A stretch of DNA of 64,000 bases, from NCBI GenBank assembly GCA_017525025.1, contig JAFXUJ010000001.1:1-64000 (forward strand), written 5' to 3'. A program made the translations under genes and the position numbers. Numbering within the stretch: position 1 is the first letter of the stretch; each line of letters starts with the position of its first letter. A model generated the notes under the pieces. The model worked only from the letters and a program-made list of their open reading frames with translations. It made no database searches and was not told the DNA's origin. This document shows positions 59,476 to 63,744 of this stretch, piece by piece. The stretch is from Elusimicrobiaceae bacterium. Its GTDB lineage: Bacteria > Elusimicrobiota > Elusimicrobia > Elusimicrobiales > Elusimicrobiaceae.

Positions 59476-60030
59476 TTATCTTACAAATACAGCAGCAGCG
59501 AGGACCGTGGTCCACATGCCATCCACACAAATAGCAGATTGTGTGATATTGGTGGTGCGGACGATTTTGCCGCTCATTTTCCAGATTTCTTCTTTTTTAT
59601 CCCAAGTGGTATCGTTATCAAAATCAATACCCAAGGTAGTGGACAACATGAGTGCGGCTAAATCTTCGGCATAGTCGCCGGCTTGTTTGTCGGTTTCGCC
59701 AAAGCTGTGGTGTTCGGACAAATAACCGTAGTTATTTTTGCCGTCTTTCGGAATTGCCACACCGACGGATGCGGCGATCATGCGGCGGTATTCGTTACTT
59801 GTATTGCGGCTGATAACACAATGCAAGATTTGTCCGGGCTTGAGTTGTTCTCTGCCTTTAGCGGCGGGGATGAGTTTGCATCCCGGCGGGAAAATACTAG
59901 ATACCGGTACAATGTTAAACGGCGCAATTTTGGCATCGCGCAAAGCTTCTTCGAAGCTGGCCAGTTTTTCTTTGTGGCGTCCAATCCCTTTGGTAAGGAA
60001 TATTTCTTTGGCAACAAACGGTTCGTACAT
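59476..60030 (-). CDS. pdaD: Pyruvoyl-dependent arginine decarboxylase
   Basis: The enzyme decarboxylates arginine to agmatine, using a pyruvoyl group made by self-cleavage between two serines. The 184-residue product has the cleavage motif in VPVSSIFPPG, where S45 would become the pyruvoyl group, and the family phrase ISRNTSNEYRRMIAASVGVA. The reading frame runs on to 60258, but the ATG at 60030 gives the normal length. TATAAT at about 60078-60083 is a likely -10. speB follows after 13 bases, giving arginine to putrescine in two steps. Confidence 0.93.
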   Translation of the reverse strand: MYEPFVAKEIFLTKGIGRHKEKLASFEEALRDAKIAPFNIVPVSSIFPPGCKLIPAAKGREQLKPGQILHCVISRNTSNEYRRMIAASVGVAIPKDGKNNYGYLSEHHSFGETDKQAGDYAEDLAALMLSTTLGIDFDNDTTWDKKEEIWKMSGKIVRTTNITQSAICVDGMWTTVLAAAVFVR

Positions 60031-60170
60031 TTTTGTTATTCCACAAGTCCTTTTATGTGAATTTTTGAATATGTATATATTATAACAAATAACATCTTTT
60101 GTAAATCTATAATTTTTAGGCACAAGTAAATAAAATTTGTAGAATGGGTATGATGTATAGAAATGTCTTT

Positions 60171-60185
60171 GGGGGAAGTGCCCCC
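60171..60185 (+). other. 5' UTR hairpin of the pilin-like gene
   Basis: GGGGG pairs with CCCCC around AAGTG, 34 bases upstream of the start codon. The gap from 60031 to 60218 otherwise holds the divergent promoters of pdaD and this gene. Confidence 0.45.
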
Positions 60186-60218
60186 GGGATAAATTTACCA
60201 TAAGGGAAAAATAACTAT

Positions 60219-61619
60219 ATGTACAAGGAAAAGTTTTTAGATAACAAAAATCGTACACAAAACCGAACTGTTTTTCATCGGGCAGGGTTTTCTGTTTTGG
60301 AACTAGTAGTTGTCTTATTGATTATGGCGATTTTTGCAGCTATTCTTTTGCCCAGATATCAACGATTGTTGCTTAAAAGCAGGGTCGGTTCTGTGGCTTC
60401 GGTAGTGGCTTCGGTGGCAGAAGCCCAAGAAGTTTTTTATATGTCGCATGGCAAGTACGCCAGTAAGCGGGAGGGGTTGACGCTTTCTGTGCCGATAGAT
60501 TCCAAACAAGTAGATTTGGCAATTAGTGAAGAAGACAAATATAAATTTGTTATTGCCAGTCACCCGCAAGCACCGGAAGTTCGTTACGTCGTATATCAAA
60601 AGTATAGTAAAAACTTTCCGGATAATATTCATTGTGAAGCCAAAACGGAGGATAAAGATGCCGTTTGGTTGTGTGAAGAAGAATACCAAGGCGTTAAATT
60701 GGCGCACGGCAGCATAAGCGGCGCTGATTATACTACGTATATCGTGAAAGGAAGCGCCAGTGATGGTTCGTTCTCCCAAACGTACTATAATACCAGCCAC
60801 ATTGTTGTGGAGGGGGGCAGCCGTTGCGAATCAACCGAGCAAGGCGGATGTTCCCACTCGTCTTTCTCGGGAGGATCTACTTGCCAAGGTAGCCAGGGAT
60901 CTTCTTGCCAATACAGCACGTTTACCGATTCGGAATGTTATGGCGACGGAAGAGGTGGAAAAATAGCTTCTACGGTGTGCGGATACAATACCTACATTAA
61001 TTCTTCTTGTTACAATGAGTCGGGCGACGGTTATGTATGCGGCCGGAGTGCCTATGAAGATAATTCCTCTTGCTATGGTAATGAATGGGGAGGATGCGGC
61101 CACTCAACTTTCTCGGATAATTCTTCGTGCTACGGGCAGAGTTATACAGCCTGCGAAGACAGCACGTTCACCGATTCTTCTACCTGTGTAGCGGAAGGCA
61201 CCGGCGGCTGCAGAAGGAGCAACTTTACGGATTCCACTTGCTACGCCAGAAGCGGCGGTACATCTTCTGCGCGTTCATGCGGTAGCGGTAGTACATACAC
61301 CAACTCTACCTGTTACAACCAATCCTCCGATATGTATGGGTGCGGTGCCGCTACTTATACGGCAGGATCGGCTTGCCACAGCAATGCAAGCGGCGGTTGC
61401 GGCGGCAAATCTACCTTCTCCGGCGGTTCTTCGTGCTACGGCAACGGAGCCGGTGGCTGCGGAGGCAACACCTATACAGGCGGTTCCGTATGCTATGCAA
61501 ACGCGGCCGGTGCGTGCAATAATAATACGTATTCGGGCGGATCGTATTGTTCCGGGAGTCATTGTCCGGCGGGTTCCCCGCGCCAAGACGGCACAATTCG
61601 TACGGCGGAAGGAGACTAA
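60219..61619 (+). CDS. Pilin-like protein with 12 cysteine-pair repeats
   Basis: The 466-residue product has a prepilin start: a 23-residue leader, then G23 followed by FSVLELVVVLLIMAIFAAIL with Glu at mature position 5. An ordinary pilin-like part follows to about residue 195. From about 200 to 455 come 12 irregular units of 18-24 residues with the pattern C-[YQ]-x(4-9)-C-x-x-[SN]-x-[FY]-[ST]-x-x-[ST], rich in Gly, Ser, Thr and Asn. Each unit carries two cysteines, so disulfide-stabilised coils of a beta-solenoid are plausible. The tail is short and hydrophilic. A surface adhesin or pilus tip is the best guess. I know of no named family with this repeat. Confidence 0.85.
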   Translation: MYKEKFLDNKNRTQNRTVFHRAGFSVLELVVVLLIMAIFAAILLPRYQRLLLKSRVGSVASVVASVAEAQEVFYMSHGKYASKREGLTLSVPIDSKQVDLAISEEDKYKFVIASHPQAPEVRYVVYQKYSKNFPDNIHCEAKTEDKDAVWLCEEEYQGVKLAHGSISGADYTTYIVKGSASDGSFSQTYYNTSHIVVEGGSRCESTEQGGCSHSSFSGGSTCQGSQGSSCQYSTFTDSECYGDGRGGKIASTVCGYNTYINSSCYNESGDGYVCGRSAYEDNSSCYGNEWGGCGHSTFSDNSSCYGQSYTACEDSTFTDSSTCVAEGTGGCRRSNFTDSTCYARSGGTSSARSCGSGSTYTNSTCYNQSSDMYGCGAATYTAGSACHSNASGGCGGKSTFSGGSSCYGNGAGGCGGNTYTGGSVCYANAAGACNNNTYSGGSYCSGSHCPAGSPRQDGTIRTAEGD

Positions 61620-61642
61620 ACACTTTTGCCTAAGCTGATTTT

Positions 61643-61674
61643 AAAGCCCCGATAGAAATTATCGGGGCTTTGTA
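61643..61674 (+). terminator. Terminator of the pilin-like gene
   Basis: AAAGCCCCGAT pairs with ATCGGGGCTTT around seven bases. Confidence 0.85.
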
Positions 61675-61698
61675 CGTTATAAATGCTATTATATGAAT

Positions 61699-63744
61699 AT
61701 GAAAAAATATCATATCTTGTTTGTCTTATCTTTGTTCTTGTCTACGGGAGTTTTTGCTATGCCAAATATGTTTAACAAAAATGGAGTCCTTCATTTTGAT
61801 TATAAAGCGGCCGATTTAGCCCCGGCGGAAGCGGCGGCCCGGGCTCAGCTTGAGAAAGATTTAGCTGCTTTTGTGGCGATGCCCGCCCAAGAACGTACTT
61901 TTGATAATACGATTTTAGGATATTACCGTATTTTTAAAAAATACCACGAGGCGTTGGGTGTCAGCGGTTTTTTGGGATACGTGTCTACGGACAAAGAATT
62001 AAGGGACACAATTACAGAATTGGAAATGCAGATTAGCCAATACCTGGTAGAAGTTTCCACCCGGCGCGATATTTACCGGGCGATTCGCGCCTATACGGAT
62101 ACCCACCCGCAATTGGATCCCGTACAAGCCAAGCTTGTTAAAGAAATGTTAATTGGGTTTAAATACAAAGGGATGGATTTAAATGATAAAGATTTGGAAA
62201 CTTTCCGGGAACTTAACAAAGAAGAAGCCCAATATACCATTAACTTTGATAAAAACATCCGCGAATATAAAGATCCGCTTTATGTAACGCAAGAACAGTT
62301 AAAAGGGTTAGGGGAAGATTATATCCAAAAATTAGAAAAAACAGCTGACGGGAAATACACCGTTACGCTAGACTATCCGGACGTTGTTCCTTTCATGCGT
62401 AGCGCGGAAGACGAAAAAGCCCGCCAACAATTGGAATACAAATACAATCGCCGCGGCGGGGAGCAGAACGTAACGTTGTTAGAAAAAACGCTTACGCTGC
62501 GTCGGCAAGCCGCTCATTTGCTGGGTTACAAAACATTTGCCGATTTACAATTGGAAGACCGCATGGCTAAAAATCCGCAACGGGTGATGGATTTTCTAAA
62601 AGATTTGCAGAAAAAATTAACCCCTTTTGGGAAAAAAGAAACCAAAAACTTGGTAGCCTATAAAAATGAAAAAACAGGCAAAAAGTCTCGCGTGCTTTAT
62701 CCGTGGGAGAGCGCTTATTGGGGCTATCAATATAGCAAAGAACATCTTAATTTGGATAGCGAAAAAATAAAAGAATATTTCCCTTCACAGGTTGTTATTG
62801 ACGGTATGTTAGATTTATTTGGGGGGCTTTTTGGCATTACGTTTGAGCCGGTTAATATTCCCGTTTGGCACCCGGACGTAAAAGCTTTTGCTATCAAAGA
62901 TGCACAAGATAAACATTTAATTGCGTACTTCTACATGGATTTATATCCGCGTGAAGGCAAATATAAACACGCAGCGTGTTTTGATTTGGTGGGGGGGGAA
63001 GAAAAACCGGACGGAACGTATCAAACTCCGTTCGTGGCCATTGTGGCCAATATGAATAAGCCCTCCAAAGAAACACCCTCCTTGCTAAAACACGGCGAGG
63101 TGGAAACCTTGTTCCATGAATTCGGCCACGTATTGCACAACGCACTTACTCGTGCCAAATACAGTGCCTTTGCGGGCACAAACGTCAGTTGGGATTTCGT
63201 AGAAGCTCCCAGCCAATTGTTGGAACGCTGGGCCTGGGAACCGCAGGTGCTTAAAAAAATTAGCAAACATTATAAGACGGGCGAGTCCTTGCCGGACGAT
63301 TTAATAGAACGCATGATTGCGGCCAAGAATTTCGGCACAGCTACGGCCTATTTGCGGCAAAACTTTTTTGCCCAGTATGATATGTTATTGCACACAATGG
63401 ATAAAACGCCGGACACCACGAAACTATATTTTGATTTAACGAAAAAAATCTGTCATATCCATCTAACCAAAAACACCATTCCGCAAGCGGCTTTCGGGCA
63501 TATTATGGGCGGATATGATGCGGGCTATTATGGGTATTTGTGGTCGGAAGTAATTGCGGAAGATTTTTTCAGCGAGTTTAAAAAACAAGGGGTTTTCAAT
63601 CCGCAAATCGGATTAAAATTCCGTCGGGAAATCTTGGAAAAAGGCGGTACTTTGGAAGAAGAAGAGATGGTGCGTAACTTTTTAGGCCGCCCGGCAGAAA
63701 ACGAACCGTTTTTGCGGTCCTTGGGATTAAAAAAAGGGGAATAA
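61699..63744 (+). CDS. M3-family zinc oligopeptidase
   Basis: The 681-residue product is an M3 metallopeptidase of the oligopeptidase A or Dcp type, with the zinc motif HEFGH in ETLFHEFGHVLHNAL near residue 475 and the third ligand region about 28 residues on (WDFVEAPSQ). The N-terminus looks like a signal peptide (MKKYHILFVLSLFLSTGVFA), so it may act in the periplasm. A frame starting two codons earlier overlaps the -10 box; TGC TATTAT ends six bases before the ATG at 61699, which suggests a leaderless mRNA. Confidence 0.9.
   Translation: MKKYHILFVLSLFLSTGVFAMPNMFNKNGVLHFDYKAADLAPAEAAARAQLEKDLAAFVAMPAQERTFDNTILGYYRIFKKYHEALGVSGFLGYVSTDKELRDTITELEMQISQYLVEVSTRRDIYRAIRAYTDTHPQLDPVQAKLVKEMLIGFKYKGMDLNDKDLETFRELNKEEAQYTINFDKNIREYKDPLYVTQEQLKGLGEDYIQKLEKTADGKYTVTLDYPDVVPFMRSAEDEKARQQLEYKYNRRGGEQNVTLLEKTLTLRRQAAHLLGYKTFADLQLEDRMAKNPQRVMDFLKDLQKKLTPFGKKETKNLVAYKNEKTGKKSRVLYPWESAYWGYQYSKEHLNLDSEKIKEYFPSQVVIDGMLDLFGGLFGITFEPVNIPVWHPDVKAFAIKDAQDKHLIAYFYMDLYPREGKYKHAACFDLVGGEEKPDGTYQTPFVAIVANMNKPSKETPSLLKHGEVETLFHEFGHVLHNALTRAKYSAFAGTNVSWDFVEAPSQLLERWAWEPQVLKKISKHYKTGESLPDDLIERMIAAKNFGTATAYLRQNFFAQYDMLLHTMDKTPDTTKLYFDLTKKICHIHLTKNTIPQAAFGHIMGGYDAGYYGYLWSEVIAEDFFSEFKKQGVFNPQIGLKFRREILEKGGTLEEEEMVRNFLGRPAENEPFLRSLGLKKGE

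What the first reader, a model, noticed from the sequence alone, without database searches (positions are those of the whole stretch)
60219..61619. Pilin-like protein ending in twelve cysteine-pair repeats
A normal prepilin N-terminus is joined to about 250 residues of irregular C-x(n)-C repeats rich in Gly, Ser, Thr and Asn. The units vary from 18 to 24 residues, but the second cysteine is always followed at fixed distance by an aromatic residue and Ser/Thr, as in the coils of a disulfide-pinned beta-solenoid. I cannot place this in a known family. It could be a pilus-tip adhesin whose reach changes with repeat number.
Basis: partly seen in the sequence, partly recalled or inferred. Interest (0 to 1): 0.75.

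Follow-up and report, generated by a model that had tools for sequence, protein, structure and literature searches.

The report
Pilin carrying a disulfide-stapled beta-solenoid
A gut bacterium of the little-studied family Elusimicrobiaceae makes a type IV pilus subunit whose extra C-terminal half is predicted to be a small rod of stacked coils, each probably pinned by a disulfide bond; this rod matches no described repeat family and is most likely a binding head displayed on the pilus.

Summary
ORF 60219-61619 encodes a prepilin whose pilin body is followed by 12 Cys-pair units (18-24 aa) and a C-terminal Cys-pair cap; shuffling never reproduces the pattern (0/20,000). No Pfam, NCBIfam, PHROG or PDB-sequence match covers the repeats. 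AlphaFold2 on the repeat domain gives a regular solenoid with two strands per coil (mean pLDDT 83.9, pTM 0.85); Foldseek returns only weak beta-helix-class matches. AF2 over-predicts solenoids for perfect repeats, but these repeats are diverged, 14/15 non-redundant family members have an even Cys count, and charged residues avoid the conserved core positions.

The module occurs in 19 of 341 genomes of the phylum, in two genera of one family, with up to ten matching loci per genome.

Best reading: a modular minor pilin, in the sense of S. sanguinis PilB and Thermus ComZ, presenting a lineage-specific disulfide-stapled beta-solenoid as a binding module, probably at the pilus tip. The ligand is unknown.

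The parts
60202..60207 (+). Shine-Dalgarno-like AAGGGA, 11 nt before the ATG
   Evidence: read from sequence
60219..61619 (+). CDS of the modular pilin, 466 aa plus stop
   Evidence: syntenic orthologs in four other species
60219..60287 (+). class III leader, residues 1-23, predicted prepilin peptidase cut G23|F24
   Evidence: GFSVLE motif; TIGR02532 above cut-off; prepilin peptidase domain A24_N_bact found in the genome
60288..60380 (+). N-terminal alpha1 helix of the pilin, residues 24-54, Glu5 kept
   Evidence: sequence; AF2 helix 26-55; homology to solved pilins
60381..60818 (+). pilin body, residues 55-200, own Cys pair C139/C152 (IHCEAK..WLC) shared with other repeat pilins
   Evidence: structure poorly modelled here
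60819..60875 (+). repeat unit 1 (C203/C211)
60876..60929 (+). repeat unit 2 (C222/C230)
60930..61001 (+). repeat unit 3, long inter-Cys loop (C240/C254); first unit of superblock A
61002..61064 (+). repeat unit 4 (C264/C274)
61065..61121 (+). repeat unit 5 (C285/C293)
61122..61178 (+). repeat unit 6 (C304/C312)
61179..61232 (+). repeat unit 7 (C323/C331); last unit of superblock A
61233..61304 (+). repeat unit 8, long inter-Cys loop (C341/C354); first unit of superblock B
61305..61367 (+). repeat unit 9 (C365/C375)
61368..61427 (+). repeat unit 10 (C386/C394)
61428..61484 (+). repeat unit 11 (C406/C414)
61485..61541 (+). repeat unit 12 (C425/C433); last unit of superblock B
61542..61616 (+). 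C-terminal cap SYC-x4-CPxGSPR (C444/C449), conserved in the family
61643..61671 (+). perfect 12-bp inverted repeat after the stop, likely terminator, so the gene is probably transcribed alone
   Evidence: read from sequence; not flagged by the scan, whose T-run rule it does not meet
59476..60258 (-). left neighbour, pyruvoyl-dependent arginine decarboxylase-like; this ORF call is too long at its 5' end, true start probably near 60031 (MYEPFV)
   Evidence: family named from memory, not searched
61693..63744 (+). right neighbour, M3-type peptidase (FHEFGH)
   Evidence: family named from its motif

Best explanation
The gene encodes a modular minor type IV pilin. The N-terminal pilin part is cut by the prepilin peptidase and inserted into the cell's retractable type IV pilus. 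The extra C-terminal module is a beta-solenoid of about 12 coils plus a cap. Each coil is about 19 residues with two short strands, one at the first Cys and one at the S-x-F/Y motif; each is closed by a disulfide between its own two Cys, and the core is made of Cys, Gly/Ala/Ser and one aromatic per coil. The stiff rod of about 6 nm is displayed on the pilus, most likely at its tip because of its bulk, and works as a binding head for a gut surface or macromolecule. Computed here: prepilin signal, repeats, pilus machine genes in the genome, conservation, and the predicted solenoid. Inferred: actual disulfides, tip position and binding function; the ligand is unknown.
For: Prepilin signal above the NCBIfam cut-off and homology to solved pilins. 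In the same genome: prepilin peptidase, PilB-, PilC- and PilM-like proteins, a PilQ/GspD-type secretin and two PilT-family ATPases. AF2 of the repeat domain: pLDDT 83.9, pTM 0.85, five models at 81-84, two strands per coil; same layout in the full-length model. Foldseek returns nearly only beta-helix and solenoid classes, though none significant. In 88 distinct regular units, C1, C1+2, C1+7, C2, C1+11 and C1+13 are conserved and 0-1% charged, with charge at positions between them. Cys count is even in 26/27 mature proteins, and in 14/15 after clustering at 50% identity, p=0.0005. Repeats are under stronger purifying selection than the pilin body (dN/dS 0.046 vs 0.159 in the one unsaturated pair). 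Precedents: S. sanguinis PilB (PMC8179133) and Thermus ComZ (PMC6561018).
Against: No experiment. AF2 has a documented bias to confident but false beta-solenoids on perfect random repeats (PMC11795689), and only two sequences could be used in the alignment. The pilin body was not modelled well, so linker and tip geometry could not be tested. No DsbA or VKOR homolog was found in the genome, so how disulfides form in a presumed anaerobe is unexplained. Even Cys number is also usual in this genome's ordinary pilins (25/29), so parity is not specific to the solenoid. No ligand-binding signature was found.
Confidence: 0.55

Rival explanations
1. The solenoid pilin is a DNA receptor of the pilus, as ComZ is in Thermus, and serves natural transformation.
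For: ComZ is the closest characterised pilin plus beta-solenoid design and binds DNA (PMC6561018). Competence and pilins have been discussed together in the related Endomicrobium (PMC8809381).
Against: The repeat module is acidic in the window protein (-9) and in nearly all relatives, with few lysines. The gene is not next to other pilus or competence genes. It is patchily present among close relatives. Charge alone is not decisive: ComZ's solenoid has no positive patch either.
Confidence: 0.12
2. The repeats are a passive spacer or protective sheath, and unit number tunes the reach or shields the pilus.
For: Unit number does differ between paralogs across the family (roughly 5 to 13 Cys pairs).
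Against: Orthologs of this gene all have 12 units in the same order, each matching its own counterpart (222/240 best hits at the same index). A spacer should tolerate unit gain, loss and sequence drift, but the repeats are more conserved than the pilin. Twelve coils span only about 6 nm.
Confidence: 0.13
3. The region is not a solenoid: it is a flexible Cys/Gly/Ser-rich tail, and AF2 has invented the fold.
For: AF2's documented solenoid bias (PMC11795689); shallow alignment; Foldseek E-values not significant.
Against: Natural, diverged, position-specific repeats rather than perfect copies; five AF2 models agree; conserved core positions free of charge; even Cys number; purifying selection.
Confidence: 0.12
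4. The Cys pairs bind metal or stay as thiols on the surface of an anaerobe, giving a metal-binding or redox appendage.
For: No DsbA or VKOR found in the genome, and only a sub-threshold Thioredoxin_4 hit.
Against: Cys pairs are 8 residues apart in most units and up to 14 in this protein, with no CxxC, CxxCH or His-rich motif; variable loops between partners suit disulfides better than metal sites. Even Cys number in nearly all members.
Confidence: 0.08

Closest known systems
Modular type IV pilins, e.g. PilB of Streptococcus sanguinis (PMC8179133)
   Same: N-terminal pilin module plus a bulky C-terminal extra module in a roughly 50 kDa protein, in a cell with a pilus assembly machine.
   Different: The extra module in PilB is a vWA domain with a metal site; here it is an undescribed disulfide-rich repeat solenoid with no known ligand.
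ComZ of Thermus thermophilus (PMC6561018)
   Same: A pilin-like protein with a beta-solenoid as its second domain; ComZ is argued to sit at the pilus tip.
   Different: ComZ's solenoid (about 380 residues, triangular) is inserted between the last two pilin strands, is stabilised by a hydrophobic core, and its gene lies next to pilA2. Here the module follows the pilin part, has about 19-residue coils each with a Cys pair, and the gene stands alone.
CofB / TcpB minor pilins of T4b pili
   Same: Large minor pilins with extra beta-rich modules after the pilin part, placed at the pilus tip (as described in PMC8179133).
   Different: They act as trimers; CofB adapts a secreted partner. No Cys-pair repeats are described there. 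Not compared structurally here.
Disulfide-bonded insect antifreeze beta-solenoids (e.g. Tenebrio AFP; from memory)
   Same: Coils held by about one disulfide each, Ser/Thr/Cys-rich.
   Different: 12-residue coils with a TxT ice-binding face; here about 19-residue coils in a pilin of a mammal-gut bacterium. At most the same structural trick; no relation shown.

Membership tests
Type IV pilin (prepilin) | short leader ending in Gly, then F/M and Glu at +5 of the mature protein | tested here: met
   RAG|FSVLE; TIGR02532 17.0 bits vs cut-off 16.3
Type IV pilin (prepilin) | hydrophobic N-terminal alpha-helix homologous to pilins | tested here: met
   phmmer hits to PilA/PilE structures; AF2 helix 26-55
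Type IV pilin (prepilin) | assembled into a filament | not testable with these tools
   machinery genes are present in the genome, but assembly needs an experiment
Modular pilin (PMC8179133) | N-terminal pilin module plus an extra domain that is not part of general pilus biology | tested here: met
   pilin part residues 24-200 followed by a repeat module of about 265 aa that the ordinary pilins of this genome lack
Modular pilin (PMC8179133) | tip location and direct ligand binding | not testable with these tools
   inferred from size and precedent only
[quoted passage not shown]
   after the repeats only a 25-residue cap remains
ComZ-type competence pilin | gene next to pilA2-like competence pilins | tested here: not met
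   neighbours are an arginine decarboxylase-like gene and an M3-type peptidase
Beta-solenoid fold | regular stacked coils with parallel strands | tested here: inconclusive
   AF2 prediction strong, but no significant Foldseek match and a known AF2 bias; coordinates could not be inspected
Pentapeptide-repeat proteins | A(D/N)LXX repeats matching the Pfam pentapeptide models | tested here: not met
   no such Pfam match at E<=1, although some weak fold matches are of this class
Insect TxT/Cys antifreeze proteins | 12-13-residue TCT-type repeats | tested here: not met
   units are 18-24 residues with different spacing; no PDB sequence match to the repeats

The most novel reading that the evidence does not exclude
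A new disulfide-stapled beta-solenoid family that arose within Elusimicrobiaceae and is used as an interchangeable pilus head: up to ten matching loci per genome, on different pilin bodies, in some members behind a second Cys-rich module. It would be folded by an oxidative pathway without DsbA or VKOR in a presumed anaerobe.
Probability: 0.35. Interest if true: 0.68.

Novelty: new variant of a known kind. Interest (0 to 1): 0.52.

Why it matters
Modular pilins are recognised as a way for bacteria to graft functions onto a pilus, but a repeat solenoid with one Cys pair per coil was not found in the libraries or papers searched here. In a phylum with almost no genetics it gives a concrete surface protein to test, and a family whose copy number and architecture vary between close species. 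If the disulfides are real, it also raises the question of how a bacterium in which no DsbA or VKOR was found oxidises 28 cysteines in one exported protein.

Tried and rejected
Known repeat family: Pfam, NCBIfam, PHROGs, PDB sequence, plasmids and phages all negative for the repeats. Viral contigs: no relative. Sigma-54 promoter: matches in the window are no more than chance and none lies at the gene. Variable repeat number in orthologs: rejected. Antisense or overlapping genes: reverse-frame ORFs exist but have nothing to support them. Full-length model: the pilin body failed with two sequences, so a repeat-only job was run. Herlemann 2009, the E. minutum genome paper, is not held, so prior description of such pilins there could not be checked. 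Relatives outside the phylum could be looked for only with short peptide patterns in genome contigs, which found one Elusimicrobiaceae record.

Full report
OBSERVATION. The ORF at 60219-61619 (+) translates to 466 residues with the coordinates given. It starts with a prepilin leader (MYKEKF...FHRAG|FSVLELVVVLLIMAIF), exceeds NCBIfam's cut-off for the prepilin cleavage domain and matches solved pilins over about 75 residues of its N-terminus. Residues 201-441 are 12 Cys-pair units of 19,18,24,21,19,19,18,24,21,20,19,19 residues; a 13th, shorter pair (C-x4-C) sits in a C-terminal cap. An aromatic residue follows the second Cys at +5 (10 units) or +6 (2 units). A statistic for this arrangement scores 11 against a shuffle mean of 1.4, and none of 20,000 shuffles reaches it.

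WHERE IT IS. The genome (G000, 1.55 Mb, 99% complete) belongs to Elusimicrobiaceae: the one named relative found is a yak-rectum MAG of that family, with the same gene order. The genome holds 48 pilin-like loci and pilus machine genes: PilB-, PilC- and PilM-like proteins, a PilQ/GspD-type secretin, two PilT-family ATPases and a prepilin peptidase. The gene stands alone between a divergent pyruvoyl-dependent arginine decarboxylase-like gene and an M3-type peptidase, with its own ribosome-binding site and a perfect 12-bp hairpin behind it.

THE FAMILY. A profile of the repeats finds 19 of 341 genomes of the phylum, in two genera (g1, g15) of one family, with up to ten matching loci in a genome. 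Nothing is found in Pfam, PHROGs, PDB sequences, plasmids, phages or viral contigs. Other phyla could be scanned only with short exact peptide patterns, so absence there is not shown. Members carry roughly 5 to 13 Cys pairs after the pilin part, on several kinds of pilin body. Some place a second Cys-rich module before the repeats (L108, L109, L110). Some g15 members have a pilin-like N-terminal helix without the GFxxxE cut site (L055-L058). Two species share a different syntenic locus with tandem repeat pilins (L114, L115).

EVOLUTION AT THIS LOCUS. Five species, the window's included, have the ortholog in the same slot. All have 12 units plus cap; lengths differ by at most one residue in a few units, and a unit's best match in another species is its own counterpart in 222 of 240 cases. 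Units 3-7 and 8-12 share the length pattern 24-21-19/20-19-18/19, and offset 5 is the strongest mean self-similarity (42.3, against 40.6 for neighbours); the block alignment ranks 2 of 120 permutations. This suggests an old five-unit duplication. The repeats are 62-73% identical to three of the orthologs, the pilin body only about 50%. In the one pair that is not saturated, dN/dS is 0.046 in the repeats and 0.159 in the pilin part. In at least twelve other species the slot is empty, with 97-227 bases between the neighbours' start codons. In two close relatives it holds an ordinary pilin, and in one ortholog-bearing genome a second, ordinary pilin follows. A tree of the adjacent peptidase puts all five in one nine-species clade (support 100/100) together with two ordinary-pilin and two empty cases (some 'empty' labels outside this clade were not checked one by one). 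This fits one gain in that clade followed by loss or replacement, but two gains are not excluded.

STRUCTURE. Only the window protein and the yak relative met the predictor's rule. Full length: the repeats are modelled mostly at pLDDT 75-90, the pilin body is not modelled. Repeat domain alone: pLDDT 83.9, pTM 0.85, all five models 81-84, two short strands per unit, one around the first Cys and one at S-x-F/Y. Foldseek's best matches are pentapeptide repeats, alginate epimerases, polygalacturonases, tailspikes and designed solenoids, all with E>=0.03 and TM<=0.4: the class is beta-solenoid, the family none. AF2 is known to give confident false solenoids for perfect random repeats, with charged residues stacked inside (PMC11795689). 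Against that artefact: the repeats are diverged and natural; in 88 distinct units the conserved positions C1, C1+2, C1+7, C2, C1+11 and C1+13 are 0-1% charged and small or aromatic, while charge sits at positions between. Coordinates could not be inspected, so disulfide geometry was not measured.

DISULFIDES. 26 of 27 mature family proteins, and 14 of 15 after clustering at 50% identity (p=0.0005), have an even number of Cys. Ordinary pilins of the genome are also mostly even (25/29), so this is a general sign that exported Cys are paired in this lineage. Pairing within a unit (C1-C2) is inferred because the cap has its own pair and each unit brings two. No DsbA or VKOR was found (DsbB was not searched); the oxidant is unknown.

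MECHANISM. The most likely reading is a modular minor pilin: the pilin part is processed and polymerised, the solenoid is carried on the filament, probably at the tip because of its bulk, and binds something. That chain is inference from S. sanguinis PilB and Thermus ComZ. A beta-solenoid rises about 0.48 nm per coil (general knowledge of the fold), so the module is about 6 nm long; repeat number cannot meaningfully set the reach of a pilus. The conservation of each unit points to a specific surface rather than a spacer. The acidic module (-9) and solitary gene argue mildly against DNA uptake as the function, though ComZ's solenoid shows that charge is not decisive.

NOVELTY. Modular pilins are known, and a beta-solenoid pilin is known (ComZ). 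The Cys-pair repeat, its likely fold, its appended position and its apparent confinement to one family are not described in the libraries or papers searched (no held paper has both 'type IV pilin' and 'cysteine-rich repeats'). It is a new variant of a known kind. Interest is moderate: a clean, testable protein family in a poorly known phylum, but without a ligand or experiment.

Noticed in passing
window 60031-61693 and syntenic loci L074-L103: The gap between the arginine decarboxylase-like gene and the M3 peptidase is empty in at least twelve species but holds a repeat pilin, an ordinary pilin, or both in one clade: a slot of pilin gene turnover.
   Followed up: partly
L108, L109, L110 (G077, G017): Very Cys-rich proteins (L108 is a pilin with 42 Cys in its mature part) that place TSP1-like W/C-rich modules before the same kind of repeats.
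   Followed up: partly
L055-L058 (g15 genomes): Repeat proteins whose N-terminal pilin-like helix lacks the GFxxxE motif and so may stay as membrane anchors.
   Followed up: no
whole genome G000: 48 pilin-like loci in a 1.55 Mb genome; a Tad-like locus also exists (L126).
   Followed up: partly
whole genome G000: No DsbA or VKOR homolog found although exported pilins are Cys-rich with mostly even counts.
   Followed up: partly
L128 614-1825: A second unusually large pilin (403 aa) that the repeat search did not match.
   Followed up: no
L114 and L115 (G036, G074): A second syntenic locus, shared by two species, with tandem repeat pilins between an EamA-like transporter gene and a GH57-like gene (names from memory).
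   Followed up: partly
L062 (G107): The single family member found with an odd Cys count (29); its repeats look like a diverged, glycine-rich version.
   Followed up: no
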